DNA from: Zygnema cylindricum
Lineage: Eukaryota > Streptophyta > Zygnematophyceae > Zygnematales > Zygnemataceae
NCBI GenBank assembly: GCA_037447655.1
Contig: JBBHKE010003457.1
Span: 1 to 64,000 of the forward strand
Direction: 5' to 3'
DNA length: 64,000 nucleotides
The translations under genes were made by a program, and so were the position numbers. The notes beneath the pieces are model-generated. The model ran no database searches, was not told where the DNA came from, and was given only the letters and a program-made list of their open reading frames with translations. Numbering within the stretch: the stretch's first letter is position 1; each line of letters opens with the position of its first letter. Below are positions 7,725-58,499 of this stretch, one piece after another.

Positions 7725-7771
7725 AAGGAGCTAATCGTCCTTGTCTTCGGATTGCGCTTCATGTACCTGTG

Positions 7772-11495: not shown

Positions 11496-14396
11496 AAAAT
11501 AACTTGTACGGGTTGTGTCTTGAAATTATAATGACAATGATGTTATGTACTCAAGTGTAATTAGCGATTGTGATTTATGGCATAAACTTTTAGGACATGC
11601 GAATTATGATATACTAGAAAAGATGGTAAATCACAAAATGGTGGAAGGTGTAAAAATTAGTCAAAAACAAACATCAAATGTATGTGATGGTTGTGCAATG
11701 GGAAAAATTCATAAGTTGCCTTTCCCTTCGCAAATTGATCATAGAAGTAGCAGGGTGCTAGAACTAATTTATTGAGATGTATGGGGGCCTTTAAGGTATC
11801 TATATGTGGGAGGAGTTAATTTTATGCTTACCTTTACAGATGACTATACTAGATTTACTACAGTATACTTTTTGAAAAGTAAAGATGAAGTTTTTGCAAA
11901 ATTTAAGGAGTATAAGGCTTGGGTAGAAAATCTGCATGGAAGAAAGATAGCAGGATTCAGATGTGACAATGGAGGGGAGTACATTTCTAATGAGTTTGTA
12001 GAATTCTTAAAATTACATAGAATCTCACGCCAACTAATTGTACTTTACTCTCTAGAACAAAACGGTGTTTCAAAGAGGATGAATAGAACTATATCATAGA
12101 GCGCTAGGACAATGATGGCTGATATGGACATAGATTACAAATTTTGGGCTGAGGCTATGAATTGTGCAGCTTATGTGAGGAATAGGTTGGAAACAAGGGC
12201 ATTAAAAGATAAAACTCCTTATGAAATGTGGACTGGGCAAAAACTAGATCTAAGTCACTTCAAAGTTTTTGGAAGTAAGATTTTTATGCTAGATAATGAT
12301 CCGCAGAAATGGAAGTTAGAACCAAAATGCATACTAGGGCTATTTCTAGGGTATGATGATCATGCCAAAGGTTTTAGGGTGTGTATGACATTAAAAGAAA
12401 TAGAGTTTTGGTAGCCAGAAACATCATAGTGGAGGATGAAGGAAAAGGAGTAGATGTATTTAATGAGCGTAAAGATGAGAAGAAGGATAGAAGTGTTGAT
12501 TATATTTTTTTGGAAGAAAATCCTATGTTTTTCAGAAAAAGTGCAGAAAATGCATCTATACTACCTCAGAGTGACTTGCGGCCTACAGAACCATCTCCTC
12601 CAGTGGAAACAAGACCTGAACAATATCCTACACTAGAAACAAGGCATGTTATGCCTGAAAGAGTTGCAGACTCTCCTTTGCCTCAAGCTGAAACCGAATC
12701 ACAAGCAGAATCACTTATTTCGAGGAGGAGGACTCAACCATCTATACCAGCAACAGAATTTCCAGGTGGAGTGAGGCGAAGTGCACGACTCAAGGGAGCA
12801 AATGTAGCTTTTGCTCACTCAGCACACATAGAAGAGCCTCTAACATTGACAGAAGCTTTTTCGAGTGATGAAAAGGAACACTGGGTTGAAGCGGTCAATG
12901 AAGAAATGAAATCCATCATGGAAGCCCAAACGTGGGAATTAGTGGAACTTCCTCCACAAAGGAAGGCTATTAGGAGTAAATGGGTGTTTAAGTTAAAATT
13001 GAACGCAGATAATACCATAGATAGGTTATAAGGCTCGTTTGGTTGCTAAGGGATATAATCAAAATGAGGGGATAGATTATGAAGAAACTTTCTCGTCTGT
13101 TGTAAGGTTTCCATCTGTACGCATCTTACTTACACTAGCTGCCATAGAGGATTTTGACATTCACCAAATGGATGTCAAAACTGCCTTTTTGCATGGTGAT
13201 TTAGACGAGGTCATTTACATGAAGCAACCAGAGGGTTATCAGGAAGCACGAAAAGAAAATCTTGTGTGCAGACTTTTTAAATATTTGTATGGCTTGAAGC
13301 AAGCCCAACGACAGCGGAACAAAAAATTAGATGAGTTCTTGACAGGATTAGGATTTACTAGAATTAGTTCTGATCATTCTGTATATGTGATGTGTGGTGA
13401 TAATCTTGATGAGGTGATATTCATTGCTGTGTATATTGATGATCTGCTACTAATAAGTAGGAACAAAGAAGGAGTTGCTAGAGTAAAACACACTCTTAAT
13501 TCACAATTTGAAATAAAGGATTTGGGTGAGGCAAAATATATTCTTGGAATACAAGTTGAAAGAGATAGAGAAAAGAAAATACTTAGGGTAACTTAGATAG
13601 AAGCAATAGGAAACTTGTTGGAAAAATTTGGCTTGGCTGATGCCAAAGGTTATGCAACTCCTATGGATTATAAGCAGAAACTTGAAGGAATAGAGCATGA
13701 GTTTGGAGTCATAATATATGAGAAACTCAGTGTAGAAGAGCAAAAATTTATGTCTCAAGTACCTTACAGACAAGTAGTAGGAAGTCTGATATACTTCATG
13801 AATTGTACTACGCCTGATATAGCTGCAGCTACGGGTGTATTGAGTAGAAGTCTGCAAAACCCACAAAAGAAAGACTGGGAGGCAGCAAAAGGGTCTTAAG
13901 GTATCTTATTGGGACCAGAAATCTTTGGCTTACTTTTGGTGGGGACAAGGTTGACATTAATACTTGGAGTGATGCTAGCTATGGTAATGTGCCTAGTTGG
14001 AAGTCTACAACTAGGTATGTTATTCAAATTGGAAGTGGTACTTGTACTTGTGCCGAATACATGGCTGCGAGCGCAGCCTTGAAAGAGTTGCTATGGATTA
14101 ACGCGTTTCTTCAAGAATTGGGTTTTATGCAACACGGGACACAAATAATGTGGTGCGACAATCAAGCAGCCATTTTTGTGGCTACAAACCCAAGTCACCA
14201 TTTTAAGAGTAAACATATGGACATTCGGCTATATTTGGTACGTGAGAAAGTATTTGCAAAGTGGTAAAACTTTGTTATTTGTCTGATGAGAAAATGGTTG
14301 CGGACATGTTGACAAAAGCCCTTCCCGCTCCTAAGTTAGAGTACTACAGAAAAGCATGTGGTCTAAGTGAGTAAATCTTCTAAAGCTTAAGGGGAG
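11496..14396 (+). pseudogene. Copia family A pol, 5'-truncated
   Basis: This starts at the GAG-pre-integrase domain (LWHKLLGHANYD at 11577) and runs through the integrase zinc finger (CDGCAMGKIHKLPFP), the core (CDNGGEYISNEF), RT (KARLVAKGYNQ region, VYIDDLLLIS at about 13430) and RNase H (ADMLTKALPAP near 14320). Its closest relative is the copy at 20463-23312. Stops at 11773, 12099 and 13596 and a frame break at 13030 disable it. The left end abuts LTR B, so B inserted into this A element and the rest was lost. Confidence 0.9.
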
Positions 14397-17532: not shown

Positions 17533-17952
17533 GTTATCGCTAATTGTCTGTGTAATTAAGGTAACAATTCTTGTTATGGCTAATTTTTTGTTTAATTTAG
17601 GTAACAATTCTTGTTATCGCTAACTGTTTGTGTAATTTAGGTAATAATTCTTGTTATCGCTAATTGTTTGTGTAATTTAGATAACAATTCCTGTTATCGC
17701 TAACTGTTTGTGTAATTTAGGTAACAATTCTTGTTTCCACTAATTGTTTCTGTAATTTAGGTAACAATTCTTGTTATCGCTAACTATTTGTGTAATTTAG
17801 GTAACAATTCTTGTTATCGCTAATTGTTTGTGAAATTTAGGTAACAATTCTTGTTATCGCTAACAGTTGTGTAATTTAGGTAACAATTATTGTTTTCGCT
17901 AACAGTTTGTGTTATTTAGATTACAATTAATGTTATCGCTATCAGTTTGTGA
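17533..17952. repeat. 40-bp minisatellite, block 3
   Basis: About 10 units of the repeat found at 437-3233. It lies between the 5' ends of two head-to-head A elements. It is the likely right part of one original array split by the 14-kb nest at 3234-17532. Confidence 0.9.
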
Positions 17953-19794: not shown

Positions 19795-20459
19795 GGGCAT
19801 GGTTACATCAAACGAAAAGTGAGGTTTAATACAGAATTTTGTACTTGTCCGTACCACGCCGTACTATATTTTCATGAGTTTCTTGAAAACAACATTACAG
19901 AAAATAAGATTACGATTCTTCGAGTATTCGGGAGAAGACGTAGACCGTCCGATTACATTTTGGTCTTCATCTGCGAAGCAATCGCTCCATACGCCTCTAT
20001 ATTGGTGAACCAAACTCGCGGAGGTGGGTTCACCAATACAGAACCAGTCAATTTGCTACACCTAGACGATACACATGTGCGTCGATGAAAAATGAAAATT
20101 TTCACACGTTCTAAAGTCACGTGCCTTCGAACAAGGTGCTCGTAAAATCTTTGCCGAAAAGAAATACGGTTTTTTCTTGAAAGTCAACAGAGTGAAAGAG
20201 ATCTGTGAGGTACATTGATGCGGTACACTTGCACGTACACGTACGTCATACGGAAGTACGGATTTCTATACGAAAATGGTCGGTTTTCAAATCTTTGACG
20301 ATTGTAGAGATTTGATTGTCGACTTACGTGGAGCTACTCATATCAGAACACATATTTAAAAACTTCTTTACAGACGATACGCGATGTAACCAAGGCCTCT
20401 GTAATACAAAAATTTTGTAGTCTGTACTATTACAAAGACCTCCTGATGTAACCATACCC
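19795..20459 (+). mobile_element. PIF/Harbinger-like MITE inserted in Copia A pol
   Basis: 665 bp with terminal inverted repeats GGGCATGGTTACATCA and TGATGTAACCATACCC (one mismatch) and a TAA target duplication (19792-19794, 20460-20462). A 3-bp TWA duplication with GGG...CCC ends is typical of PIF/Harbinger. Joining the flanks leaves the Copia frame open. No transposase is present. Confidence 0.8.
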
Positions 20460-20462
20460 TAA

Positions 20463-21217
20463 GAATGGGAAAATAGCTGCAGAGGGATATGCTGGTGGAA
20501 ACAACTTGTACCGACTGTGTCTTGCAAATGATAATGACAATGATGTTATGTACTCAAGTGTAATCAGTGATTGTGATTTATGGCATAAACGTTTAGGACA
20601 TGTGAATTATGATAGACTAGAAAAGATGGTAAATCAGAAAATGGTAGAAGGTGTAAAAATTAGTCAAAAACCAGCATCAAATGTATGTGATGGTTGTGCA
20701 ATGGGAAAAATACATAAGTTGCCTTTCCCATCGCAAACTGATCATAGAAGTAGCAGGGTGCTAGAACTAATTTATTCTGATGTATGGGGGCCATCAAGGT
20801 ATCCATCTGTGGGAGGAGTTAAGTTTATGCTTACCTTTACAGATGACTATACTAGATTTACTACAGTATACTTTTTGAAAAGTAAGGATGAAGTTTTTGC
20901 AAAATTTAACGAATATAAGGCTTGGGTAGAAAATCTACATGGAAGAAAGACAGCACGATTCAGATGTCACAATGGAGGGGAGTACATTTCTAATGAGTTT
21001 GCAGAATTCTTCAAATTGCATGGAATCTCACGTCAACTAACTGTTCCTTACTCTCCAGAACAAAACGGTGTTTCAGAGAGGATGAATAGAACCATATCAG
21101 AGTGTGCTAGGATAATGATGGCTGATATAGACATAGATTACAAATTTTGGGCAGAGGCTATGAATTGTGCAGCTTATGTGAGAAACAGCTTGGAAAAAAA
21201 GGGCAGTAAAAGATAAA
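20463..21217 (+). pseudogene. Copia family A GAG-pre-integrase and integrase
   Basis: Continues the frame broken by the MITE. GAG-pre-integrase LWHKRLGHVNYD is at 20579. The zinc finger CDGCAMGKIHKLPFP and the core follow: TDDYTRFTTVYF, then CHNGGEYISNEF where the family has CDNGGEY, so a catalytic Asp is lost, then PEQNGVSERMNRT. A one-base break near 21210 shifts into the RT frame. Confidence 0.92.
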
Positions 21218-22735
21218 ACTCCTTATGAAATGTGGACTAGACAAAAACCAGATGTAAGTCACTTCAAAGTTTTTGGAAGTAAGATTTTTATGCTAGATAA
21301 TGATCCACAGAAATGGAAGTTAGAGCGAAAAGGCATACCAGGGCTATTTCTAGGGTATGATGATCATGCAAAAGGTTATAGAGTGTATGACATTAAGAGA
21401 AATAGAGTTTTGGTAGCCAGAAACATCATAGTGAAGGATGAAGGAAAAGGAGTAGATTTATTTAATGAGCGTAAAGATAAGAAGAAGGATAGAAGTGTTG
21501 ATTATATTTTTTTGGAAGAAAATCTTATGTTTTTCAGAAAAAAAGCAGAAAATGCATCTATACTACCTCAAAATGACTTGCGGCCTATAGAACCATCTCC
21601 TCCAGTGGAAACAGGACCTGAACCATCTCCTACACCAGAAACAAGGCATGTTATACCTGAAAGAGTTGCAGACTCTCCTTTAGCTCAAATTGAAACTGAA
21701 TCACAAGCAGAATCACTTGTTTCGATGAGGACTCAACCATCTATAACAGCAACAAAATTTCTAGGTGGAGTGAGGCGAAGTGCACGACTCAGGGGAGCAA
21801 ATGCAGCTTTTGCTCACTTAGCACACAAAGAAGAGCCTCTAACATTGACTGAAGTTTTTACGAGTGATGAAAAAAAACAATGGGTTGAACCGGTCAATGA
21901 AGAAATGAAGTCCATCATGGAGGCCCAAACGTGGGAATTGGTGGAACTTCCTCAAGGAAGGAAGGCTATTGGGAGTAAATTGGTGTTTAAGTTAAAATTG
22001 AACCCAGCTAACACCATAGATAGGTATAAGGCTCGTTTGGTTGCTAAGGGATATAATCAAAAAGAGGGAATAGATTATGAAGAAACTTTCTCCTCTGTTG
22101 TAAGGTTTCCATCTGTACGTATCTTACTTACACTAGCTGCCATAGAGGATTTTGACATTCACCAAATGGATGTCAAAATTGCCTTTTTGCATGGTGATTT
22201 AGACGAGGTCATTTACATGAAGCAACCAGAGGGTTATGAGGAAGCAGGAAAAGAAAATCTTGTGTGCAGACTTTTAAAATCTTTGTATGGCTTGAAGCAA
22301 GCCCTGCGACAGTGGAACAGAAAATTAGATGAGTTCTTGACAGGATTAGGATTTACTAGAATTAGTTCTGATCATTCAGTATATGTGATGTGTGGTGATA
22401 ATCTTGATGAGGTGATATTCATTGCTGTGTATGTTGATGATCTGCTACTAATCAGTAGGAACAAAGAAGGAATTGCTAGAGTAAAACACGCTTTTAATTC
22501 ACAATTTGAAATAAAGGATTTGGGTGAGGCAGAATATATTCTTGGAATACAAGTTGAAAGAGATAGAGAAAAGAAAAAAATTTGGCTAACTCAGAAAGAT
22601 GCAATAGGAAACATGTTGAAAAAATTTGGCTTGGCTGATGCCAAAGGTTGTGCAACTCCTATGGAGTATAAGCAGAAACTTGAAGGAATAGAGTATGAGT
22701 TTGGAGTCATAATAGATGAGGAACTTAGTGCATAA
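21218..22735 (+). pseudogene. Copia family A reverse transcriptase
   Basis: The longest open frame in the window, 501 codons from 21230 to 22735. It covers the integrase C-terminus (FGSKIFMLDND, GYDDHAKGYRVYD), a variable Pro/Glu-rich linker, and RT with KARLVAKGYNQKEGIDYEET, QMDVKIAFLHGDL, YGLKQALRQW and the catalytic YVDDLLLIS at about 22432. The frame ends at a stop just before the RNase H domain. It is the best preserved Pol here and among the younger insertions. Confidence 0.93.
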
Positions 22736-23312
22736 GAGCAAAAGTTAATGTCTCAAGTACCTTAAAGACAAGTAGCAGGAAGTCTGATATATTTCATGAA
22801 TTGTACTTGGCCTGATATAGCAGCAGCTGTTGGAGTATTGAGCAGAAGTCTACAAAACCCACGAAAGAAAGACTGAAGGCAACAAAAAGGGTCTTAAGGT
22901 ATCTTGTTGGGACCTGAAATCTTTGGCTTACTTTGGGATGGGACAAGAATAGCATTAATACTTGGAGTGATGCTAGCTATGGTGATGTGCCTAGTAGGAA
23001 GTTTACAACTGGGTATGTCATCAGATTAAAGGGAACTTGAAGTTGAGTAGTAAACTCAAAAGGTCACCAATCTACTACGGAACGGACACGCGGTCGCACC
23101 GGAAAGTACTGGATTAAGGCCAAGATTGGGTTTTACGAACACCTGACACAAATAATGCAGCGACAATCGCGCCATTATGAAGGCCAACCGCCCCAGCAGC
23201 ATAAGAGATTTTGCTACATTTGTACGAGAGTATTTCAAAAAGTGGTAAACTTGCTATTCCCATGAGAAAATGGTCGCGACATGTTGACAAAGCCTTTCCC
23301 GCTCCTAAGTTG
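22736..23312 (+). pseudogene. Copia family A RNase H, decayed and cut
   Basis: Matches 13740-14330 with several indels: SLIYFMNCTWPDIAAAVGVL, SDASYGDVPSRK, then a scrambled stretch at 23030-23230 and MLTKPFPAPK at 23283. The 3' end, polypurine tract and 3' LTR are missing because LTR D begins at 23313. Confidence 0.8.
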
Positions 23313-24018: not shown

Positions 24019-24762
24019 GTCATCAAGAATACCTATCTTTCAAGGGAAAAGTATGTTTACCGGGCGGACATGGTGGAGACACAGTTTAAGAATGTCAATC
24101 TCTTGGACATATTGGATGGTTCTCTGGATGAATCTGATCCGGCATGGTCTAAGAAAAATACGCAAGCTCGTTTTATTCTCAAATTCTGTATATCTGAGGA
24201 CTTAGCTATGTCTTAAATAAAAATGGAAAAAGTAATTGATATCTGGAAATCTCTTAAAAATGATTATGAAAAAGCTTATGTCTAGGAAGAACTCTTATTG
24301 GTTGGAAAAATTTGGGACTATAAGTACACTGGCAGTTCCATGGCTGAATATTCTAACAAGTTTTGCATCCTTGTAGATGCACATGCTTGTGCAGGTGGGG
24401 AGTTTCCTCAATTTCAACAGGCAGCGCTGCTCATGATGGGTCTCCCTCGTAGTATGAAAGGCGCATGTGATATGCTCAAACAGATCGATAAAGCTAGCTG
24501 GACTTTACAGTTAGCCATCAATATTTTGCTAGAAGAGGAAACTACATCTAATATTCTCAATGTTCAGCAGGTAGAGGCTTTTAACTCATACTTTGAGAGG
24601 AAAGGTCAGTTTAATCAGCAAAGAAATCTGTCTAATCAGTTCAGACAGTTTAATCAGGGTAGGAATAGACAATCCAACAATGCATGTTTTTAGTGTCGTG
24701 AGAGAGGTCATGGATACAAATTTTGTCCCAAGCTTAAAAAAGCTGACGATACAGGTTTATAC
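24011..24762 (+). pseudogene. Copia family D gag
   Basis: Gag begins MGLSSRIPIFQGK; a frame break follows within about 20 codons. The capsid part at 24298-24693 reads well (YTGSSMAEYSNKF, QQAALLMMGLPRS). The C-terminus is Gln/Asn/Arg-rich, and the CCHC knuckle (CFxCRERGHGYKFC) has a stop codon inside it at 24691. Other stops lie at 24206 and 24282. Confidence 0.85.
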
Positions 24763-25584
24763 ATGTCGGGATGGCAACAAAGTCAGTTTTACAAAAACTA
24801 CGAGGTGTCTACACCTCGTGGAAATGCACTATTTTTAGCAGCTTCATCACTCCAGGATGAGACTTTGACATTTTCTGAGGAAGATGAAACGGATCTATTC
24901 GCCATGGCGGCAGCGATGGAGGGCGCTAAGGACCCTGGATGGATAATGAACACGGGAGCGTCAGCCCACATGTGCTGGAACAAAGCCATCTTCAAAAATA
25001 TGAAAACAACGCCGGAGAAAAATATTTATTATGCTTGTGGAATGAGTGTTCAGACTCGTGCTGTGGGTGATGCGTCTTTGCTAGTTGATGTGGAGGGCAA
25101 AGCAACTGAAAGGACTCTTCACAATGTCTTGTTTGTGCTTGACTTTAAGAAAAATCTGTTTTCTACGTCTTTGGTAGAGAGTAAAGGCTTTGAGGTTAAT
25201 TTGAAAAATGATAGGCAGGTTGTTAGCAAAAATGGCAAAGTCGCAGTTACCGGTACTAGAGATATTAGCAAGTTATACCGAATAGATATGGCTAATACCA
25301 AGGAGAATGATGTTCTGTACTCCGGTGTTTTGCATTCAGATGAGTTGTTGCATAAGAGATTAGGACATGTAAACTATGATAGTTTGAGAAAAATGGTCAT
25401 TGTTGGAAAAATAGAGGGTGTCTCAATTACAGATGAGCCAATCAAAACATGTGATGGCTGCGCTTTGGGCAAAATCCACAAACTACCATTTCCTAAAGAG
25501 ACTGAGCATCGGTCCACGAGACTTTTACAACAAATTCATTCGGATGTTTTTGGTCCTGCGAAGGTTCCTTCTGCCGAGGAATGA
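24763..25584 (+). pseudogene. Copia family D protease and GAG-pre-integrase
   Basis: An open frame of 273 codons. The protease motif is GWIMNTGASAHMC, with Asn-Thr-Gly in place of Asp-Ser-Gly, so the catalytic aspartate is lost. GAG-pre-integrase LLHKRLGHVNYDSL lies at about 25345, and the integrase zinc finger CDGCALGKIHKLPFP at about 25450. A frameshift near 25580 leads into the integrase core. Confidence 0.9.
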
Positions 25585-26255
25585 AATATATGGTCACGTT
25601 CACAGATCATTTCTCCAGGTTTACAAAAGTTTACTTCATGAAAGAGAAGAGTGAGGTGTTTGGTCACTTCAAACACTACAAAGCATGGGCTGAATTAATT
25701 CATAATTTATCTATTATACAGCTCAGATCGGACAATGGTGGTGAATATACTTCGAAAGAATTTGAAACTTTTTTACTCGAGGAAGGCATAAGTCATCTGT
25801 TGATTGTTCCATATTCGCGGGAACAAAATGGGTTGTCGGAAAGATTAAATAGAACTCTCACGGAGAGCTCGAGGTCGATGCTCGCAGATAAAAATGTGGA
25901 TCCGAAATTCTGGGCTGAGGCTCTAAATTGTGCAGTTTATATTAAGAATAGGATAGGATCAAAATCGGTAAAATCTACTCCTTACGAGACAGGTACCAAA
26001 CTTGATGTTAGCCATTTCAAAGTCTTTGGTTGTAAATGTTTTATCTTAGATACGTCTACAAATAAATGGAAAATGGAATCGAAGGGATTACCGGGTATTT
26101 TGTTAGGATATGATGACCACTCAAAAGGTTACATAGTCTTTGTGTTTGAGAGGCAGAAAATAGTTGTAGCAAGGAATATCATTGTCAAAGATGAACTAGA
26201 CTCGATAGATTTATTTCACATGACAGAGCAGCAAAAGCAGCAAAAAGTACAGTAG
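25581..26255 (+). pseudogene. Copia family D integrase core and C-terminus
   Basis: Contains TFTDHFSRFTKVYF, RSDNGGEYTSKEF with the catalytic Asp preserved, SREQNGLSERLNRT, FWAEALNCAVYIKNR and FGCKCFILDT. The frame ends at 26255 in a Gln/Lys-rich tail. It corresponds to 20800-21450 of the A element. Confidence 0.92.
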
Positions 26256-27015
26256 TATGTCATCTTAGATTGCATGCAAGAAATTGTCCCGCAGGTGCAA
26301 CATTCTTCGCTGATGACTCCAGAATCAGACTCTCTCCAACTTCCTCAACACGTTCAGTTCCAACCGAACCAACAGCAGTCAATGCACACGGATCGCAACC
26401 AGCGCAATCAGCGCAATGCGCGGCAATCGACGATCTAAGCCTCAGAATTTTTGGGGGGAAGAAGATCGAGCAGCCGCCTACAAGCAAGCTCTCACTTTGC
26501 CTACTCGGCAGCCTCAGAGGAGCCCTTGACCATCCAAGAGGCCTTCTCATCACTAGAGCGGAATCACTGGATTAAGGCAGCAAACGACGAAATGAAGTCG
26601 ATCATGGAGGCACAAACTTGGGAACTTGTGGACCTTCCTCCGGACCGAAAAGCGATCGGCAGCAAATGGGTATTCAAGGTGAAGTTAAATCCCGATAACA
26701 CCATTGAACGCTATAAGGCCAGACTTGTGGCGAAGGGTATAATCAAAAGGAAGGAATCGATTTTGAAGAAACATTTTCTTCGGTTGTAAGATTTCCAAAA
26801 GTTAGGATTTTGCTGTCCCTAGCTGCTATAGAAGATATGGAAATTCATCAGATTGATGTAAAGACGACCTTTTTGCACGGAGAACTAGAAGAGACCATTT
26901 ACATGTAGCAGCCTGAAAAGTATGCAGAACTAGGAAAAGAGCACTTAGTATGCAAGTTGCTAAAATCCTTGTACTGCCTAAAATAAGCCCCTAGTTAATG
27001 GAATCGTACATTTAC
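26256..27015 (+). pseudogene. Copia family D reverse transcriptase, N-terminal part only
   Basis: A linker with several frame changes is followed by the RT start at 26560-26745 (WELVDLPPDRKAIGSKWVF, YKARLVAKG). Downstream, frames shift and stops appear (26788, 26908). Similarity ends near 27015, before the YVDD motif, so polymerase palm and RNase H are missing. No 3' LTR of family D is seen before the gap. Confidence 0.8.
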
Positions 27016-28859: not shown

Positions 28860-29130
28860 ATTTTGAAACGGTTTAAGGGTTTTACGGATTGCCAAAAACT
28901 GAGATTCTAAGGGACTCTAGCAAGGTTTCAGGTTTTTTTAAATGGGTTTTACTTAGGGTTTTCTAAAGCATACTAGGGTTTCTACAGCGAATTTAAGGTT
29001 TTACTTAGGGCTTCGGAGTTTTCCTGTTTAGGTTTAGGTCTATAATTTAGTGTGAGAGTTTCAATTTGAGGGTTTCTAGTTTCGGCTTTGCGGTATAGAA
29101 TAAAAGGTTTAAGGTTGAGGGTCAGGATTC
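28860..29130. repeat. Degenerate TTTAGGG-like (telomere-type) stretch
   Basis: Words such as TTAGGGTTTT, TAGGGTTT, TAAGGGTTTT and GAGGGTTT recur irregularly on the plus strand over about 270 bp. They resemble decayed plant-type telomere repeats, but no two perfect units are adjacent. Confidence 0.35.
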
Positions 29131-29222
29131 AAGATTAAGATTTGACCAAAAAGGTTCAAGGTGCGCCAATATCTCAATCCGCCTTCGTTTTCAAAAAGTT
29201 TCGAGCCTTCGCACGTTCACTC

Positions 29223-29749
29223 TATTGAGGATCGGCAATATTTAACATATTGCATGGGCGCCAAATTGTAAAATTTGGAAAATGGCCTAGCCGGGGATCG
29301 AACCCGGGACCTTGTGTTAGCCGTACACTAGCTCTACCAACTAAGCTACTCGGCCGATGTGCATGCAAATGCTTAAAATAAAATTTAAGGCAATAATCGG
29401 TGCACTTGCCGAACCACCATTTACTGCGATACACACGTGTGGAGTCTGAAGTGGACCTTTCTCCAACATGCACCCTCACTATCTTCTCTATCTCGTGTTG
29501 CTTGCCAACTCCCCTTACCCGTCACCATCTGAGAGATTCACATTCTATAGGAGCCAAAAGTGAAACTTTGAAAAATGCTAAGTCGGGGATCGCGCGGGAC
29601 CTTAGTAATGGACACTAGCTCTACCACCTAAGCAACTGGCCGATGTGCATGGAAGCACGAAACCGAATTTCATGACAATGAGGCGCACTAGCTGAACCAT
29701 CATTTATTGCGATACACACGTGTGGAGTCCACTGGACATTCTTCCAACA
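29223..29749 (-). mobile_element. TRIM retroelement copy 1 with tRNA-like module in both LTRs
   Basis: On the minus strand: 5' LTR 29749-29528, internal region 29527-29469 (59 bp) and 3' LTR 29468-29223 (246 bp). LTRs start TGTTGGA and the 3' one ends TCCTCAATA, giving short inverted ends. The internal region lines up with that of copy 2 (TGGCAAGC...GAGAT...GTGAGGG). The PBS is decayed. There is no coding capacity. The 3' LTR carries a tRNA-like segment at 29283-29355 and the 5' LTR a more decayed one at about 29583-29641. No matching target duplication is visible. Confidence 0.8.
29283..29355 (-). other. tRNA-like Pol III promoter module in TRIM LTR
   Basis: It reads GGCCGAG-TA-GCTTAGTTGGTAGAGC, then an anticodon arm GTGT-ACGGCTA-ACAC (GGC at the anticodon position), then CCGGG-TTCGATC-CCCGG and CTAGGCC-A. 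It has good A and B boxes (TAGCTTAGTTGG; GGTTCGATCCC), with a TTTT-type stretch soon after. It folds as a near-complete tRNA, but residue 33 is C and it is embedded in an LTR, so it is tRNA-derived and not a cellular tRNA gene. Confidence 0.8.
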
Positions 29750-30488
29750 TTTCGTTGTCAATGTAAGTATGTTGATTCGAAGATAGTGTGGCTCGATTTC
29801 GTCGTGCGTGACGACGCGCATCTTTTTCCTTTAATTTCAATTGATATTTTTACCCCGGTTCGTTATATTATAGTGTACAAAGTGTATTTCGTTTCGTGCG
29901 TTTTAATATTTTTGCACAAGACTTACATTGTTATACTTCAATTTAAAGAGGTTTCGTTTCAATTTGCGTCTAAGTTAAATGTAACGCTTAGACAACTAAA
30001 TTTCAGTTTTTGCGGCTAAGTTAATATCCAATGTGCTCTCACCGTGGAGCTCACGTAACGACAAAAAGTGACTATCTGCAACACTTATTTGCATGTGGTT
30101 GCCACAGTTTTGTTACTGTAAAACTTCACCCACCGTGTGAATTGCTAAATTTATTATGATGGTCCACGTTAGTAAGCGCGGCAAAAGTTTAAGCGGTTGA
30201 AAAAATATTTTGAAAGTCAAAGCTATCCAAACGATTGACCGTCAAATATAGACTAAACGGTACTTTACTTGTACCAATGTGTACTTCGAACGTACAGTTT
30301 TTTACGAAATAACGTAAATTACTGTGCGCAACCAAAACAGTCACTACTATGATCAATTCCCCGGAACTAAACCGCCTGATCTCAATATTTCAACACCTCG
30401 AATGGTTGTTTAGGTCTTATCAAACTGAAACTAGTAAGCATAGAGAATTTCTAAATATTCTACAAGATTCGACACTACACCATAAATC
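29750..30488. other. Unassigned intergenic sequence
   Basis: No gene seen. The stretch 29897-29957 is similar to 33742-33803, which lies just beyond TRIM copy 2 (both contain TTTAAAGAGGTTTCGT). An unnamed dispersed repeat therefore flanks both TRIM copies. Confidence 0.5.
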
Positions 30489-30496
30489 GTTATTAG

Positions 30497-31386
30497 TACT
30501 GTTGTGTATCGGTAAGGATTTGTTGATAACCGATATGGGCCTTTTTTTGGGTAGCCGTTAATCAATACATTGATACAATATATTGTTATCAGTGTTATCG
30601 CCGATAAATAACTAATATTTATTGGTTATTTTCGGCGATAACACCGATATCGATATCTATTGGCGATATATCTACGGACTGTGCATATAAATGTACGGCC
30701 TGTTCACTCAACTGTAAGTGTTATTCCCCCGACGCGCCCTACTCACAACCCCTATCAACTGAGGTGCCTACGAATCATATCATTTGTACAAGCCGAAAGT
30801 ACAGTAGCTTGCATAAGGTATGTACAACTTTAGTACGGCTCTAGTTGAAACGATGTACCTTTCACATCCGACCCCATGGCTTTGTCCCTTTCTTTCTTAG
30901 GATCCACTGGAAACCCGCCACATGTTAATCTGTCCGTTTTTTTGGCATAAGTTGCCAAATGAGGCATTCGGGGATGCCTGCGCTCAAGTTGGCTGTCTGC
31001 TCGTATTTTCTAATTGAAAGTCGTCCGTGTGATTCTGGCGGCTCGCAAAATATTCTTTTGCGTCCATTGTACTCTGTGGCTGTCGTCATTTTTCCGTTCC
31101 ATAATCATCAGTTTGTTACAATGTCGTACGTCCCCGTAAATTTTTTCTTTTAGTTAACATGCCAGAAAGCGCTACAAAGTGCAACATATTTTTTCGTCAA
31201 AGTCTGTACATTTATTGTAAAAAAACTGTGCATTTCCCGTAAATTTTCTGTTCAATTTACCGGACAGAAGTTCCATCAAGAAAGTACAGAAAGTACAAAT
31301 ATATCGAGACCTCTGAGCGTTCGATGACCGATAACTATCAGTATTGTTGTTATCGAGATAATTTTTTTTACTGATACACAACACTA
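30497..31386 (+). mobile_element. hAT-like non-autonomous element, copy 1
   Basis: 890 bp with ends TACTGTTGTGTATCGGTAA and TGATACACAACACTA, flanked by the exact 8-bp duplication GTTATTAG (30489-30496, 31387-31394). The site fits the hAT preference nTnnnnAn. The interior near both ends is rich in GATAT/CGATA words. No transposase. Confidence 0.85.
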
Positions 31387-31394
31387 GTTATTAG

Positions 31395-32214
31395 ACTATA
31401 GAAATTATTAGTGTCAATAATGAATTAGTGTCATTGATGTTAATTTTTGTATCAATCCCATTGTGAAAAAAATGTTTGATTGTAATTTCTCAATAACGTT
31501 GATTTAAGTATACAGAATCCGACGTCATTACATATACGTTAAAATAGGTAGACGTACGAAATCTTACAATGTGTACCACGTCTCGTCCTTCCGTTGTAAT
31601 GAATCCATAGTACTAGTTTAGGTTTGCGGATGAACAATCATTACGCTGTTCATACTTATACACTAAAATAGGTACGAGTTCATTCTAAGCGCAAATCTGT
31701 ATGTAACCGAAATAAGTAAACAACAATTTCCGTACGAATTTCGGTAACCAAATATAGTGCTGTACTAACATTCACATTGCGTACACCACACTATTCATGA
31801 AGTAAGTAAGGTAACACCATTGACACTAATTTACAAGAACTGTAATTAACGTCACAGATAAATTATATTCATTCACTGTATTTCGGGTATCAATGTCAAA
31901 ATTTTCGGGTGCCGATATAGTGTACATAGGGCTAATAACCATTCACGGTGTAGAGCATGTGACCTTTTACAATAACGACAAACACACGCGACCGAATGGT
32001 CGCCATGGACTGCTGTCGCCTAATGACGAATAGGTAAGGGTGCAGAAACTGCGTTTTGAAGAAACGAATTCAATGCGAATTTCTAGTTCGGTGAAGAAGT
32101 CCGATACCCGTTTTTTTTTTTTTTTTTTTAGCTGTTCTAAGTCTTTTGTGACGTGACAAATCTTGTCCGTACGCACTTGATTGTCCTTTCAAAAGAGATT
32201 TGCCTTTGTATGTG
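31395..32214. other. Intergenic sequence, no feature seen
   Basis: AT-rich, with a 20-bp poly-T at 32110-32129. No coding or RNA signal is recognised. Confidence 0.5.
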
Positions 32215-32327
32215 TGTTGGAGGAATGTCCACTTTGGACTCCACACGTGTGTTTCGCAGTAAATGATGGTTCCGTTAGTGCGCCGTTCATTGCCGTAATT
32301 TCGGTTTTAGGCGCTTGCATGCACATC

Positions 32328-32400
32328 GGCCGGGTAGCTCAGTTAGTAGAGCTAGGATATGGCTAACACAAGGTCCCGGGTTCGATCCCCGGCTTGGCCA
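32328..32400 (+). other. tRNA-like module in the 5' LTR of TRIM copy 2
   Basis: A 73-nt tRNA-like unit. The seven-pair acceptor GGCCGGG/CTTGGCC includes two G-U pairs. It has D-arm GCTCAGTTAGTAGAGC, loop ATGGCTA (anticodon position GGC, T33 present) and T-arm CCGGG-TTCGATC-CCCGG. The anticodon stem is weak on the 5' side. TTTT follows two bases later, a possible Pol III stop. Confidence 0.8.
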
Positions 32401-32460
32401 TTTTCCAAAGTTTTCACTTTGGTGCCAATGCGATATGTTGAATATCGTTAATCCTTAATA

Positions 32461-32521
32461 TGGTATCATAGCAAGGGGGCGCTGGCAAGCCACAAGAGAT
32501 GGAGTACATCGTGAGGGGGCG
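32461..32521 (+). promoter_or_regulatory. PBS and polypurine tract of TRIM copy 2
   Basis: TGGTATCATAGC begins directly after the 5' LTR, and GTGAGGGGGCG directly precedes the 3' LTR. Only about 38 bp separate the two priming sites. The corresponding region of copy 1 is conserved in length (59 bp). Confidence 0.75.
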
Positions 32522-32557
32522 TGTTTGAGGAATGTCCACTTCGGACTCCACAGGTAG

Positions 32558-33536
32558 TGTTGAGATTTGAAATCTTTAGTTAGTAAATAGAGTAGACTTA
32601 GAATAGTTTCTAAAAAGTGGTATATAAGACTTACCTTTATTAGTGTTACAGTAGGCAAAGTACAATAGAGTGTATTGTACCTTTGCAGGTTATACGGAGT
32701 GACGTCGACACACTTCACGCAGCAGGCAATTGGAATCGCCAGATCAGACGGACGGAATCTGATCCGGATATCTCAGAACATATATGGTATGGCTATTTTT
32801 GGAGTTATACAGATTTTTTGGAATTATATGGTACGGAATATTTTTATGATCATTAAATATAAACGTCCGGATATTTCGGAAGTGAATTATGATCATTGAT
32901 TTGGAGAGACGTCGACGGACGCGATTCACGTGGGACCGCAAGTGACGAGGCGAGATTTACGTGGGACCACAAGTGACGAAGCACTCAGGTGCTTCGTACT
33001 ACACGACCACATTGGGCTATACTTTAGCGGCTACCGCTGACTAAGCATTTGGAACGTTTTGTGTACGGTTAGAACGTTTTGTGTACGGTTCAATGTCTGT
33101 AAATATCTGAATAACATTAGTTTGTATTTTAGTGTGATAAAAAATAGTATTCCATTAATCAGGTTTTTAGAAAATAATAATTAGGGTTTTGAGGTACATT
33201 GACGTGTCGTTAGTCAAGATAATAACCGTAGTAACGGTTACCCAAATTAGTGTAGATTAGTAGATAGACAATGTGAGTATATAACTTAGGACTTAGCCAA
33301 TTTTGTAATATCTAGTTTTGGGAATATGATTTTCTAAGGGCAGTTTTTAAGAAACTTCTAGACATCATATCTTATGGTTTACTAAGTCATTTAGGCTGCA
33401 ATTTTGGGAATTGTCAGTTTACTATATTTTGTATTATTGTGGCGAATTTGAAGCATATTGGATTTTTGAGTCATATTTTGTGTAAGTTCTAAGTTGGTTG
33501 TTGAGTAGGTACTTTGATAGTTTCTGTTGTTTTTCA
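32558..33536 (+). mobile_element. Probable solo LTR nested in the TRIM 3' LTR
   Basis: A 979-bp insert splits the 3' LTR of TRIM copy 2. It starts TGTTGAGATTTG and ends TTTTTCA, the usual TG...CA pattern, and has the general texture of the Copia LTRs in this window. No coding sequence and no clear 5-bp target duplication. Confidence 0.45.
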
Positions 33537-33596
33537 TGTTTCGCTAGTGCGCCAATCATTGTCGTAAATTCGGTTTCAGACGCTTCCATGGACATC

Positions 33597-33669
33597 GGCG
33601 GGGTAGCTTAGTTCGTATAACTAGTGTTTGACTAACACAAGGTCCCGGGTTCCGTCCCCGGCTTGGCCA
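33597..33669 (+). other. tRNA-like module in the 3' LTR of TRIM copy 2
   Basis: Same module as at 32328, with arm GTGT-TTGACTA-ACAC (GAC at the anticodon position) and a mutated T-loop (TTCCGTC). The three well-aligned modules differ at the anticodon position, so this position is not under selection as a decoder. Confidence 0.7.
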
Positions 33670-33729
33670 TTTTCCAAAGTTTTCACATTGGCGCCCATGC
33701 GATATGTTGAATATCACCGATCCTCAATA

Positions 33730-33929
33730 CGAAATTTGTTTGTGTATTTTAATATTTCCGAACAAGAATTACTGTGCTGTACTTCAGTTTAAAGAGGTTT
33801 CGTAAATCAGGTATTACCAAACTGTATCAGTATATAAATAAGAGTCTTTTAGATGCCTTTGTGGATAGCCTTATATAGGCGGTGTGTCTGTCAAGGATTT
33901 TTTCTGTCCGCGGTACGGAAGGCCGTACC
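33730..33929. other. Short intergenic stretch
   Basis: Contains the segment shared with 29897-29957, then the lead-in to the GC-rich minisatellite. No gene. Confidence 0.5.
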
Positions 33930-34660
33930 GTTGGCACGATGTAGCGTTGCCGCTCGACGCTGTACAAACCGCTGTACCGCTGGCATAATTCCACGCTGCC
34001 GCCCGTCGGTTGGTGTAATGCTACGCTGCCGCCGCTAGCGTAATTCTACGCTGCCTCCGGCTGGCGTAATTTTACGCTGTCAGCCGCTGGCGGAATTCTA
34101 CGCTGCCGACTTTTGGCGTAATTCTACGCTACCACCCGCCAGCTGGCAGTTTTTTACGCTGTCGGCCGCTGGCATGATTCTACGCTACCGCCGGCTGGCG
34201 TAATTCTACGCCGCCGCCGGTTGGCGTAATTCTATGCTGCCGGCTGCTGGCGTAATTCTACGGTGCCGCCCGCCAACTGGCAGTTTTCTACCCTACCTGC
34301 CGCTGGTGTGATTTTACGCTGCCGCCGGTTGGCGTAATTCTACGTTGCCGGCCGCTGGTGTAATTCTACGCTGCCGCCCGCTAGCCGGCAATTTTCTACG
34401 CTGCCGGCAGCTGGCGTAATTCTACGCTTCCGGCCCCTGGCTTAATTCTACGCTACCGGCAGGTGGCCGCAGACGTAATTCTACGCTGTCGCCGACTGGC
34501 GTGATTTTACGCTGTCGGCTGTTGGCCTAATTCTACGCTGCCGACCGCAGGCGTAATTCTACGTCGCCGTGCGTCAGCAGTACTTACCGCCATACCTGGC
34601 ACAATGTAACGTTGCCGTGCAATCGTCCGTAATACGGACTGCCGTACCGCTCGCGTAATG
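33930..34660. repeat. GC-rich minisatellite, about 27-bp unit
   Basis: About 27 degenerate units, most with the core TGGCGTAATTCTACGCTGCC at 26-28-bp spacing, plus longer variants with CGCCAGCTGGCAGTTTTCTA. The core has a small dyad, GCGTA-ATTC-TACGC. Base composition is far richer in GC than the flanks. The frame-spanning reading frames here are chance products of the repeat. Confidence 0.9.
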
Positions 34661-39563: not shown

Positions 39564-40905
39564 ATGGGCCTACCCTCTAGGGTGCCTATATTTAATTGAT
39601 CAAAATTTCTTTATTGGGAAATGATGATGGAGGGAAAACTTTTTGAGAAGCACCTATGGGGCATAGTGTCCGGGCAAATTCGATGCCCACCTCCACCTGG
39701 GTTTGGAGAAACACGTTTTTCAGGCACCTCCGTCATAACAACTATTAGAACATCAGCCACCATGATGAACGATGACGAGGAAGGGGAGGAAATAATCATG
39801 GAAGGAGAAAAGGGAGGAGTTGCTTCTCGAGGAACTCCATTGTCAAGGACGATACCGGCAGCAGCACCACCAGCAATGGTGACAGAGAGTCAGACTGAAC
39901 GGTCAGAATATGAAAATTAGAACTATAAGGACAAGGTGGCTAAGCTCTTAACTCTCAAAAGTGTAGTGAAGGGTATTGCCATTCCCCTTATAAATGTTAG
40001 ATCTTCCTCTCAAATTTGGGTATCTCTAGTAATCAAATATAAGAGTGGGTCATTGCACCAGCAAAGCTGGCAGAAAATAAGATTTCAACTTATACTTACA
40101 AGGGAGGAAGTATGAATGATTACTGCAATGACTTAGGAGCATTATTTGGAGAACTAGAGAGCGTAGGTAACTCATGGTCTGAGAGACACTGAGTTAATAC
40201 ACTGATAATGAAACTACCTGAAGAGTATGAGAATATCATTAATCGGTTGCAAGATCTAGGTGATAGCAATTGGAATTAGGATGATACAGTGGGGATGATT
40301 TTAGTGAAAGAGAGTACCATAGAACTTAGGAGAGGAAGTCCGAGTGTTCAAGCATTCGCTACAGGATCTGATTGGCGAAAGCGTGATGAGGAAAAAAGAA
40401 AGGATCCCTATCGAAACTTTGGAGGAAAAAGACAAGGAGGTGGTAGATTTGATCGACAAGGGAGAGGAGCTCTTCGAGGTGGATTATGTCACTTCTGCAA
40501 AAAACCGGGACATAATATGGCAGATTGTGTCAAGCTTGCAGATCTCCGACTGAAAGATGGACAAGGTTCCTCAAAAGATGGAGGAAAGAAAAAAACTTTT
40601 CTCACTCAAGTTCATGACGAGGAAGACGATGACGTAACCGAACTGGAAGAGGAGCTTGTGGAGCTTCTACTTAATCCAAAAACCACAGAGAAGCATGCAG
40701 AGACAAAAGTTCTACGGAGACAAAAGTGTGCTTTCGGAGATAAGAGGGATCCACAAGGGGATGGGTGGATCATAGACTCAGGGGCCTCAAAGCATATGTG
40801 CAAAGATAAGAGGTGGTTTACTAAATTAAGATAAATTCCAACAATTGAGATAGAGTATAGAGATGGTAGAGTAAAAACCACAAGTCTTGTTGGATCGGTT
40901 GATTA
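39564..40905 (+). pseudogene. Copia family E gag and protease, truncated
   Basis: Gag starts MGLPSRVPIFN, with a stop soon after (39599). An acidic insert DDEEGEEIIMEGEKGG lies near 39770. The capsid C-terminus at 40100-40330 (GALFGELESVGN, NRLQDLGDSNW) has stops at 40190 and 40277. The frame 40289-40834 holds a clean CCHC knuckle, CHFCKKPGHNMADC, and an intact protease motif WIIDSGASKHMC. Similarity to family C ends at about 40905; integrase and RT are absent. Confidence 0.88.
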
Positions 40906-44507: not shown

Positions 44508-45348
44508 TAGTGTTGGGTATCGGGTACCAATTGTCGATATTCGATATGTACCAAACTTCAGGTACCCGATAATCGATATATCGCCTCGATATATCGATTA
44601 TCGAAATATCGCGATATTTAGCCGATATATCTCCGATATATATCGTATCGTCGATATATTGAGGCATTTAAAAAAAAAAATGAAAATTTTCACAGGTCTC
44701 CAAAGTCACGAGCCTTCGGACAAGATGACCGTAAAATCTTTGCCGAAAAGAAATACGGTTTTTTCCTGAAAGTCAGCAGAGTGAAGGAGATCTCTGAGGT
44801 ACATTGACGCGGTACACTTGCGAAGTACACGTACGTAATACGCAAGTACGGATTTCCATACGAAAATGGTCGGTTTTCAAATCTTTGACGATTTTAGAGA
44901 TTTGATCGTCAACTTCCAAGGACCACTCAAATAAAAACACGTATGTAAAAACCTGTTTACAGAAGATACGCGATGTTAACCGAGGCCTCTGTAATACAAA
45001 AATTTTGATGTCCGTACTATTACAGATACCTCCTCATGTAACCATACCCCAAATAAGTAATCATATGAATTACAAAATTTGTACTTTTTTGTCGGTGACA
45101 TTTTGCTGCGTCTACCTTTAAGTCACGGAACGAAAATCACGTCGTACGTGGCGTATCAGACAATTTGTTTTTTTCGCTACAATAACATATTATATTAAAA
45201 TATAAAATATTAAATTTAAAAAAATACTATAGATCGCGATAATTTATGTTGGTTTCGGTACGATATATCGAGGAGTCTGCTCGATCGATATTCGATATAT
45301 CGAGTATCGAAATTATCGCGATATGAATTTACCCGATACACAACACTA
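44508..45348 (+). mobile_element. hAT-like element, copy 2 (subfamily I)
   Basis: 841 bp. Ends TAGTGTTGGGTATCGGGTA and TACCCGATACACAACACTA, exact 8-bp duplication GTGTTTAC (44500-44507, 45349-45356) fitting nTnnnnAn. The subterminal regions are packed with CGATATATCG palindromes. The middle (about 44678-45047) is homologous to the right half of the Harbinger-like MITE at 20090-20459. Confidence 0.88.
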
Positions 45349-45356
45349 GTGTTTAC

Positions 45357-46367
45357 AAAGCTTCCATTTTATTACATAATGTGCGATGGAAAAACCATCA
45401 AAGTACAAAGGGGGTAAAAAAAAGAAATAGAATAGTGTTTACTACTGTACCGTGTCAGATTTGCGACGCTAATCATGATGTCACGTACTTCCACGATACC
45501 AAAGAGTACAAAGTACAATAATGTTGGATTGTATGGACAGTACAAAATTTTCATTTTTTTTGGTTTTCTGATAAACCGACCGTAACCGACCATTTTATTT
45601 TTTCGTGTAATACATTATTTTACCTTCGAAACATTTGTGATCACAACACATAGCCCATTTAAGTATAGCGCTATTAAAGCTATGAGCTATATAGCTTATA
45701 GCTAGCTCGTCTGAGGAGCTATATAGCATGGCTTTGGTTGTATTNNNNNNNNNNTTGTCTGCCTGCAAGCTTATTACATGTCGAAAGGCTCGTAGCTGAA
45801 ACATCTAAAGCCTTCAAGAGCCTTTCGGCATGTTTACTGGAACGAGTTTTATAACGCGCTACATCTTCATCCCATTTTCATAGCATAAAGACACTTAGTC
45901 TGGTTGCCATTGGGCTTTTCTACTGATTCCTTGTTCACACCAAAATTTTGGGACGTAACTCCGATTGAAGGTGTCACGTGACACGTCACACGCTTCGACG
46001 TCATAAAACATAGGCGAGAAAACAAACCAGCACATTTTCAAACTTTTAGGGTTTAGCTTGGACTATTTTTTCGCGCGGGAACAACGAAATAGCCGTTCGA
46101 ATGTTGTGTTTGCTTAGTCATCTTTTCGGGTTACCGTTGGTCTGATTCACAGAAATACGATACTTTTACCCTACTTCTACATCGCGCAATATTTTGAGCA
46201 AGGTCATTTGTACGGCTTTCCGAGAACTTCCGAAATCTACAAAGTCGATGCTCGGAAAGCTGTACATTATTCGAACGTCCGTCTGTTGCGGAAGTGTTTT
46301 TTTTTTCCGGTGGGAATATGCTATGAGATTACATCCGGAAGTCTGTGAAATTGTACAAAAAACAATA
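45357..46367. other. Intergenic sequence with assembly gap
   Basis: No gene seen. Ten Ns occupy 45745-45754. The bases to the left of the gap form AGCTATATAGCT-type palindromes (45680-45730), and a strong hairpin lies to its right. Confidence 0.6.
45777..45832. repeat. Long hairpin next to the gap
   Basis: Arms CATGTCGAAAGGCTC (45777-45791) and GAGCCTTTCGGCATG (45818-45832) pair over 14 of 15 positions across a 26-nt loop. A MITE end or foldback element is likely. GTTTACTGG follows, as it does near 57047. Confidence 0.7.
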
Positions 46368-46760
46368 TTTTTGTAATACAGAGTCCTCGGTTACATCGCG
46401 TAACGTTTGTAAATAAGATTTTACATACGTGTTTTGATCTTAGTGGCCCACGTAAGCTGAGGATTCAATCTTTAAAATCGTCGAAGATTTCGAAACCGAC
46501 CGGTTTCGTTTTAAAATTTGTACTTGCGTATTATGAACTTGTAGTTTCGCAATTTGAATTTGTATTTCAAAACAAAAACGACAAAAAATAACGCTCAAAG
46601 CCTCGAAAGTCGAAACAATGAAACTGGAAGGAATGCAAACACCGTACTTTTGGAAGGAAGGCAAAAACCGTACTTCTTCTGGCAAGAAGGCATTACTGTA
46701 CTTCTTTTCCGCAAAGATTTTACGGCCACCTTGCCCGTAGGAACGTGACTTTGGTGACAT
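46368..46760 (-). mobile_element. Fragment related to the hAT/Harbinger-like middle segment
   Basis: Reverse-strand similarity to 44690-45000 (TACAGAG..CTCGGTTACATCGCG, ACATACGTGTTTTGAT, GCAAAGATTTTAC). Terminal repeats are not found, so this is a truncated copy. Confidence 0.55.
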
Positions 46761-48222: not shown

Positions 48223-48433
48223 TTTCATCGTCGCACCTGTCTGCCGTCCAGGTGTAGAGATTGTACGGGTTTTGTGATGGTGTACTTCGTGAGGTGGGTC
48301 CACTATTACTGAGGCGGATGGAGACCAAAGTAACACAAATTTTGTTTTTTAGTCCTCCTTTTCTCGCCAGTGCTCTACCATCGATGAGCATCTTGGACTT
48401 CGTTTAGGGACAATGACGACCATTTTTTTACGG

Positions 48434-52344: not shown

Positions 52345-52420
52345 CAAATTAGTGTTAGGTGTATAAAATATCGTTAGTTTTTTACTTTTTGTTGGCGTTA
52401 GGTTCGTGAACCCAAAATAG

Positions 52421-58454: not shown

Positions 58455-58499
58455 ATGGTGCTCAAATTGAATGGTCCAGGCACAACACTCTTTTGCACG

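What the first reader, a model, noticed from the sequence alone, without database searches (positions are those of the whole stretch)
29223..33729. A TRIM retroelement whose LTRs carry a tRNA-like Pol III promoter
Two independent copies on opposite strands have 246-bp LTRs with TGTT...AATA ends. Both LTRs of both copies contain the same tRNA-like module with A and B boxes and a near-complete cloverleaf. A plant-type PBS (TGGTATCATAGC) directly follows the 5' LTR of copy 2, and a polypurine tract precedes its 3' LTR, so this is an LTR element and not a SINE. Known precedent: Cassandra TRIMs of plants carry a 5S rRNA promoter in their LTRs. This looks like the tRNA counterpart. It may be undescribed in this lineage; I cannot check the literature.
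Basis: partly seen in the sequence, partly recalled or inferred. Interest (0 to 1): 0.92.

Follow-up and report, generated by a model that had tools for sequence, protein, structure and literature searches.

The report
Miniature retrotransposon with tRNA-like promoter
Two old copies of a tiny virus-like jumping element, apparently in a green-alga genome, carry a tRNA-like switch in their terminal repeats; this kind was described in 2024 as 'Helenus', so the copies seem to extend a known group to another lineage.

Summary
Copy 1 (minus, 29749-29223) and copy 2 (plus, 32215-33729) each have two LTRs around 50-61 bp of internal DNA. The two complete LTRs are 246 bp (TG...TA) and hold a 73-nt tRNA-like module (Rfam 47.5 and 41.2 bits); a third LTR scores 28.6, just under threshold, and the fourth is too decayed to be detected. 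Copy 2 has a PBS directly after its 5' LTR and a purine tract directly before its 3' LTR; copy 1 keeps only the purine tract. 'TRIM with a tRNA-type Pol III promoter' fits, but the kind is known: Kojima 2024 (PMC10886601) named it Helenus, with Selaginella as its only plant. The host is probably a streptophyte alga (a kinase gene is closest to Closterium). No LTR has TATA[AT]A and all four have a T4-5 run directly after the module, suggesting that the module is promoter and R region; this is inferred. No target duplication flanks either copy; an inversion between the copies could explain that, but shared LTR changes do not support it. Genome copy number could not be checked: the genome search failed in 19 of 19 tries.

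The parts
29223..29468 (-). Copy 1, 3' LTR (246 bp, complete; TGTT...AATA)
   Evidence: 84.1% to 32215-32460 over 246 bp
29283..29355 (-). tRNA-like module in copy 1 3' LTR; 19 of 21 cloverleaf pairs; anticodon loop has C, not U, at position 33
   Evidence: Rfam tRNA 47.5 bits; ARAGORN tRNA-Ala(GGC); pair count
29279..29282 (-). T4 run directly after the module (possible Pol III terminator)
   Evidence: sequence; such a run in 4 of 4 LTRs
29469..29519 (-). Copy 1 internal part (start approximate): decayed PBS, conserved block, purine tract GTGAGGGTGCA
   Evidence: 29514-29470 is 80% over 45 bp to copy 2 internal part; alignment
29533..29749 (-). Copy 1, 5' LTR, 3' part lost (boundary approximate), module degenerate
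   Evidence: 79.8% to LTR positions 1-206; alignments; no Rfam match
32215..32460 (+). Copy 2, 5' LTR (246 bp, complete)
32328..32400 (+). tRNA-like module in copy 2 5' LTR; 18 of 21 cloverleaf pairs; A and B boxes
   Evidence: Rfam tRNA 41.2 bits; A/B box pattern
32401..32404 (+). T4 run directly after the module
32461..32472 (+). Primer-binding site TGGTATCATAGC, 11 of 12 to the Cassandra PBS TGGTATCAGAGC
32461..32521 (+). Copy 2 internal part, 61 bp
32510..32521 (+). Polypurine tract (CGTGAGGGGGCG) abutting the 3' LTR
32522..32561 (+). Copy 2, 3' LTR, first part
   Evidence: 90% to LTR positions 1-39
32562..33537 (+). Later 976-bp insertion splitting the 3' LTR; three TATA-like hexamers and TG...CA-like ends; identity unknown, perhaps a solo LTR
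33538..33729 (+). Copy 2, 3' LTR, remaining part (LTR positions 55-246)
   Evidence: 84.9% over 192 bp
33597..33669 (+). tRNA-like module in copy 2 3' LTR; 17 of 21 cloverleaf pairs
   Evidence: Rfam tRNA 28.6 bits, just under gathering score 29
33670..33673 (+). T4 run directly after the module

Best explanation
This is a Helenus-type TRIM: a short LTR retrotransposon without room for genes (copy 1 is 527 bp) whose LTRs captured a tRNA-derived internal Pol III promoter (A and B boxes). Shown here: paired LTRs in two copies, a tRNA-like module detected in three of four LTRs, a PBS and a PPT at the two ends of a 61-bp internal part in copy 2, and a conserved internal block and PPT in copy 1. 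Inferred: Pol III starts just upstream of the module in the 5' LTR, reads leakily through the T4 runs there, and stops at the T4 run after the module in the 3' LTR. The transcript would be about 390 nt (hand estimate) with the module as R, the LTR part before it as U3 and the part after it as U5. A tRNA (initiator-Met type, recalled from plant elements) primes at the PBS, a Copia-type partner supplies reverse transcriptase, RNase H and integrase in trans, and the PPT primes the second strand. Both copies are old and defective.
For: Four LTRs in two copies, E down to 2.7e-74. Rfam tRNA 47.5, 41.2 and 28.6 bits in three of four LTRs; ARAGORN; 19, 18 and 17 of 21 cloverleaf pairs in the three modules counted, 0 of 5000 base shuffles reaching that in each (the fourth module was not counted). 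A-box/B-box pair only in this element, 0 expected. PBS abutting the 5' LTR, 11 of 12 to the Cassandra PBS; PPT abutting the 3' LTR in both copies. No TATA[AT]A on the sense strand of any LTR piece; a T4-5 run directly after the module in 4 of 4. Retrotransposon domains in 4 of 8 window ORFs tested, Copia-type. Helenus precedent with the same anatomy.
Against: No 5-bp TSD around either copy as it stands (0 of 5 matches each). The copy 1 PBS is not recognisable and its 5' LTR module is not detected. Within-copy LTR divergence is high (K2P 0.271 and 0.175), so nothing can be said on present activity. The module is no better conserved than the rest of the LTR (42 of 66 invariant ungapped columns, against 27 of 38, 33 of 56 and 27 of 43 in the other zones). 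The T4 runs inside the 5' LTR would have to be read through. Free-energy folds of the four modules do not beat shuffles (14, 132, 28 and 73 of 200 shuffles fold as well). No autonomous partner was identified. Copy number was not testable.
Confidence: 0.88

Rival explanations
1. A TRIM transcribed by Pol II in the usual way; the tRNA-like module is a passenger (for example an old SINE or tRNA insertion in the LTR) with no promoter role.
For: The module is not better conserved than the rest of the LTR among the four LTRs; two T4-5 runs follow it in every LTR, which could stop Pol III; Pol III activity of Helenus is unproven in the source paper too.
Against: No TATA[AT]A hexamer in any LTR piece; A and B boxes at working spacing in two LTRs; three LTRs keep a full T-arm and GGTTC, one of these with a changed base further along the B box.
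Confidence: 0.25
2. A tRNA-derived SINE family whose copies happen to lie close together.
For: tRNA-like part with A/B boxes; short, no room for genes.
Against: Two copies each have two LTRs of one layout around the same internal block and PPT, one of them with a PBS; the module lies inside the repeat, about 110 bp from its start.
Confidence: 0.04
3. About the missing target duplications: the two copies recombined with each other, and an inversion of the stretch between them (29750-32214) swapped their flanks and hid the 5-bp duplications.
For: As they stand both copies have 0 of 5 matching flank bases; undoing the inversion pairs CGAAA with CGAAA (5 of 5) and ATGTG with GAGTG (3 of 5); chance about 0.0003 for random window 5-mers, before allowing for the choice among pairings, which I made after looking.
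Against: Shared changes among the four LTRs do not favour it (2 sites for the inversion pairing, 4 for same copy, 1 for same side); joining the flanks does not extend a nearby repeat across the site (alignment score 75, against 76 for the flanks as they stand).
Confidence: 0.4

Closest known systems
Helenus (Kojima 2024, PMC10886601; TRIM with tRNA-like sequence in LTRs, TRIMp3)
   Same: Short LTR element without genes, tRNA-derived module inside the LTRs with A and B boxes, PBS and PPT at the ends of a short internal part; length within the published 311-1263 bp; module not expected to act as a tRNA.
   Different: Probable host is a streptophyte alga; the only plant in the paper's Table 1 is Selaginella moellendorffii, whose Helenus-1_SMo has a 120-bp LTR and an 85-bp internal part, against 246 and 61 bp here. 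Its sequence could not be compared (supplement not available).
Cassandra TRIMs of plants
   Same: Pol III-type promoter captured in LTRs; near-identical PBS (TGGTATCAGAGC against TGGTATCATAGC); similar size.
   Different: Promoter comes from a tRNA, not 5S rRNA; no 5S match in the window at gathering scores or in 29100-33850 at E<=1.
tRNA-derived SINEs
   Same: tRNA-like Pol III promoter in a short repeat without genes.
   Different: Paired LTRs, PBS and PPT; module internal to an LTR.
Copia retrotransposon remnants of the window
   Same: Possible trans-partners by class: retrotransposon domains, Copia-type, in 4 of 8 ORFs tested.
   Different: No LTR match above E 0.5 level elsewhere, no other exact PBS; one weak 22-bp match to the PPT region at 48276-48297 (E 0.03) and one PPT-like site with 3 mismatches at 51424-51440 were seen but not tied to a Copia element. 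The partner is not identified.

Membership tests
Helenus (TRIMp3) | Two LTRs around a short internal part without genes, TRIM size | tested here: met
   Copy 1 527 bp; copy 2 LTR 246 + internal 61 + split LTR of 40 + 192 bp
Helenus (TRIMp3) | tRNA-derived sequence in the LTRs | tested here: met
   Rfam tRNA in 3 of 4 LTRs, 2 of them above gathering score; all 4 align over the module
Helenus (TRIMp3) | Box A TRGCY and YGG, box B GGTTC (the paper: most Helenus LTRs) | tested here: met
   All three motifs in 1 of 4 LTRs (copy 1 3'); TRGCY and GGTTC in 3 of 4; YGG missing in both copy 2 LTRs; copy 1 5' LTR has only YGG
Helenus (TRIMp3) | PBS and PPT between the LTRs | tested here: met
   Both in copy 2; only the PPT in copy 1, whose PBS has decayed
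Helenus (TRIMp3) | 5-bp target duplications (plants, fungi) | tested here: inconclusive
   None as the copies stand; 5 of 5 and 3 of 5 if an inversion between them is undone
Helenus (TRIMp3) | Interspersed multicopy family | tested here: inconclusive
   2 copies in 64 kb; whole-genome search gave no answer in 19 of 19 tries
Helenus (TRIMp3) | Sequence similarity to published Helenus consensus sequences | not testable with these tools
   Consensus sequences are in the paper's supplement and Repbase; no supplement look-ups allowed
Helenus (TRIMp3) | Transcription by Pol III | not testable with these tools
   Not shown for published Helenus either
Cassandra | 5S rRNA-derived sequence in LTRs | tested here: not met
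   No 5S match in Rfam scans
tRNA-derived SINE | Single unit with tRNA head, no LTRs | tested here: not met
   Paired LTRs with PPT in both copies and PBS in one

The most novel reading that the evidence does not exclude
First Helenus from a streptophyte alga (a near relative of land plants), implying that tRNA-promoter TRIMs exist in green plants outside vascular plants. In it the tRNA-like module itself would define R: Pol III starts at the module of the 5' LTR and stops at the T4 run directly after the module of the 3' LTR, so one captured gene would supply promoter, terminator and the repeat needed for strand transfer.
Probability: 0.45. Interest if true: 0.5.

Novelty: new member of a known kind. 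Interest (0 to 1): 0.35.

Why it matters
It extends a recently named, thinly sampled class of mobile element (one plant species in the source paper's table) to what is probably an algal relative of land plants, and gives a concrete layout in which a captured tRNA gene could serve as promoter, terminator and R region. It also warns annotators: such LTRs can be called as tRNA genes (ARAGORN calls one of the four here).

Tried and rejected
SINE reading: rejected, paired LTRs with the same internal block in two copies. Cassandra: rejected, no 5S match. Autonomous partner in the window: no second exact PBS, no second LTR family member beyond a 29-bp match at E 0.53; a 22-bp match to the PPT region at 48276-48297 (E 0.03) was looked at and is not followed by an LTR start; the list of window repeats showed no partner. 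Extending a flanking 65-bp repeat across a joined empty site to support the inversion: no extension. Testing the inversion by shared changes among LTRs: 4 sites same copy, 2 inversion, 1 same side, undecided. Cloverleaf by free energy: z-scores -1.34, 0.51, -0.89 and -0.26 for the four modules, not informative. Viral-contig scan for a 31-nt pattern of the module with its upstream part: 0 matches (records near the window's own genome may be left out there). Host by Copia protein: the best 120 of 5504 hits reach at most 54% identity, names where given are of several angiosperms, not informative. A Zygnema genome preprint gave nothing on TRIM elements (passages only). Pfam gave no family for the first kinase exon or for the ORF 62759-63739; the kinase reading rests.

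Papers: PMC10886601 read as outline and abstract, parts 1-3 of 6 of the text, that is up to the first paragraph of section 3.7, the Discussion and figures and tables; not section 3.8, conclusions, references or supplement. PMC4717578, PMC10853983, PMC7215508 and PMC9915684: passages only. All other papers: search listing only. Searches behind 'only Helenus describes this kind' and 'no report from streptophyte algae': 30 of 33 listed; 0 found; 15 of 25 listed; 15 of 277 listed; library limited to CC-licensed PMC papers.
Full report
What is there. A BLAST of the LTR 32215-32460 against the window finds four LTRs of one family in two copies on opposite strands: 29468-29223 (84.1% over 246 bp, E 2.7e-74), 29749-29557 (79.8%), 33538-33729 (84.9% over 192 bp) and 32522-32561 (90% over 40 bp); the only other LTR match is 29 bp at E 0.53 (repeat finder agrees). 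Copy 1 reads on the minus strand from 29749 to 29223 (527 bp). Its 5' LTR has lost its last part and its internal part is about 50 bp (boundaries approximate). Copy 2 reads on the plus strand: complete 5' LTR 32215-32460, 61-bp internal part 32461-32521, then the 3' LTR, split after 40 bp by a 976-bp insertion (32562-33537) and resuming at LTR position 55. LTRs begin TGTT and end AATA; the last bases are the same at both 3' LTR ends although the flanks differ, so the TG...TA ends look real.

LTR-element signals. Directly after the copy 2 5' LTR stands TGGTATCATAGC, 11 of 12 to TGGTATCAGAGC, the PBS given for Cassandra (PMC7215508, passages). That it is an initiator-Met-type PBS of plants is recalled, not from a call. 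With up to 2 mismatches the motif is not enriched in the window (8 matches, 14.4 expected); its weight comes from being the only exact match and lying at the LTR boundary. The purine tract plus LTR start occurs at copy 2 exactly, at copy 1 with 2 mismatches and once elsewhere with 3 (0.17 expected). The internal parts of the two copies align over 45 bp at 80%. The copy 1 PBS is decayed beyond recognition.

The tRNA-like module. Rfam's tRNA model matches 29283-29355 (-) at 47.5 bits and 32328-32400 (+) at 41.2, and 33597-33669 (+) at 28.6, just below the gathering score of 29; the fourth LTR gives no match at E up to 1. ARAGORN calls the first tRNA-Ala(GGC). The three detected modules form 19, 18 and 17 of 21 cloverleaf pairs (base shuffles: means 8.3-8.6, maximum 16, 0 of 5000 reach the observed value in each case; the fourth module was not counted). 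Free-energy folding of the four modules does not distinguish them from shuffles. An A box and B box at tRNA spacing, in a pattern written after seeing the sequences, occur only in two LTRs of this element, 0 expected. The anticodon loop of the best module has C at position 33 and the anticodon stem of another keeps 2 of 5 pairs, so a working tRNA is unlikely. Among the four LTRs the module is no more conserved than its surroundings (42 of 66 invariant columns, against 27 of 38, 33 of 56 and 27 of 43; columns with gaps dropped).

How it most likely works. None of the five LTR pieces examined has a TATA[AT]A hexamer on its sense strand, and every LTR has a run of four or five T directly after the module and another T4 starting 9-16 bases after the first. 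My reading is that Pol III starts near the module in the 5' LTR, leaks through the T4 runs there and stops after the module in the 3' LTR. The RNA would then begin and end with the module, which becomes R, and be about 390 nt long (hand estimate). A Copia-type partner would do the rest in trans; 4 of 8 window ORFs tested have Copia-type retrotransposon domains, but no partner was identified. The transcript is inferred, not shown. The rival is ordinary Pol II transcription with the module as a passenger.

Age and rearrangement. LTR pairs within copies differ by K2P 0.271 and 0.175, so both copies are old. Neither has a target duplication (0 of 5 each). If the stretch 29750-32214 was inverted by recombination between the two copies, the original flank pairs would be CGAAA/CGAAA and ATGTG/GAGTG, 5 of 5 and 3 of 5, chance about 0.0003 for random window 5-mers. 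The pairing was noticed after the fact, shared changes among the LTRs do not support it (4 same copy, 2 inversion, 1 same side) and a flanking repeat does not continue across the joined site, so it stays a possibility.

Host. The window's contig is not named. Joined exons of a kinase gene at about 58452-61165 have as their two best hits of 52 two Closterium proteins (46% identity over 85% and 52% over 65% of the query); several other hits are named NIMA-related kinase. Pfam found no family in the first exon alone. Closterium is in the Zygnematophyceae. A Copia protein gave no close relative. I take the host to be a streptophyte alga, probably in or near the Zygnematophyceae, not Closterium itself; this is inference.

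Known or new. Kojima 2024 (PMC10886601; sections read) names TRIMs with tRNA-like LTR modules Helenus and groups them with Cassandra as TRIMp3. The anatomy matches. The only plant listed is Selaginella moellendorffii (LTR 120 bp, internal 85 bp). No paper on such elements in streptophyte algae appeared in what my searches listed (one search listed 15 of 277), and these cover only CC-licensed PMC papers. So this is a new member of a known kind, in a probably new lineage.

Noticed in passing
30492-30736; also 51544-51788 and 52418-52661: A roughly 245-bp repeat, the first copy 80% and 84% like the other two, with a long foldback (30565-30671) that gives Rfam hits below threshold to plant microRNA precursors MIR6274/MIR774; looks like a MITE.
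   Followed up: partly
440-857, 1603-3231, 17533-17951: Three tandem arrays with the same 40-bp unit at separate places in the window.
   Followed up: no
33979-34563: 26-bp G+C-rich tandem array about 250 bp beyond copy 2.
   Followed up: no
11497-14337 and 20499-23311: Two regions 89% alike over 2.9 kb holding Copia-type pol ORFs; further Copia-like ORFs at 4458-8452 (-), 24286-26575 (+), 40280-40834 (+).
   Followed up: partly
32562-33537: 976-bp insertion in the copy 2 3' LTR with three TATA-like hexamers and TG...CA-like ends, perhaps a solo LTR; no clear target duplication.
   Followed up: partly
29893-29957 and 33739-33803: 65-bp direct repeat, 82% alike, starting about 10 bp beyond the end of copy 2; its meaning is unclear.
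   Followed up: partly
44509-45349 and 56845-56014 (-): Inverted pair of an 840-bp repeat, 83.5% alike, parts of which also match 20088-20462, just upstream of a Copia-type ORF, and 46329-46552.
   Followed up: no
58452-61165: Multi-exon NEK-like kinase gene, closest to Closterium proteins; exons were picked by eye and no full gene model was made. Downstream, 61749-62197 and 62252-62705 are a direct repeat (72%) with similar open frames, possibly duplicated exons.
   Followed up: partly
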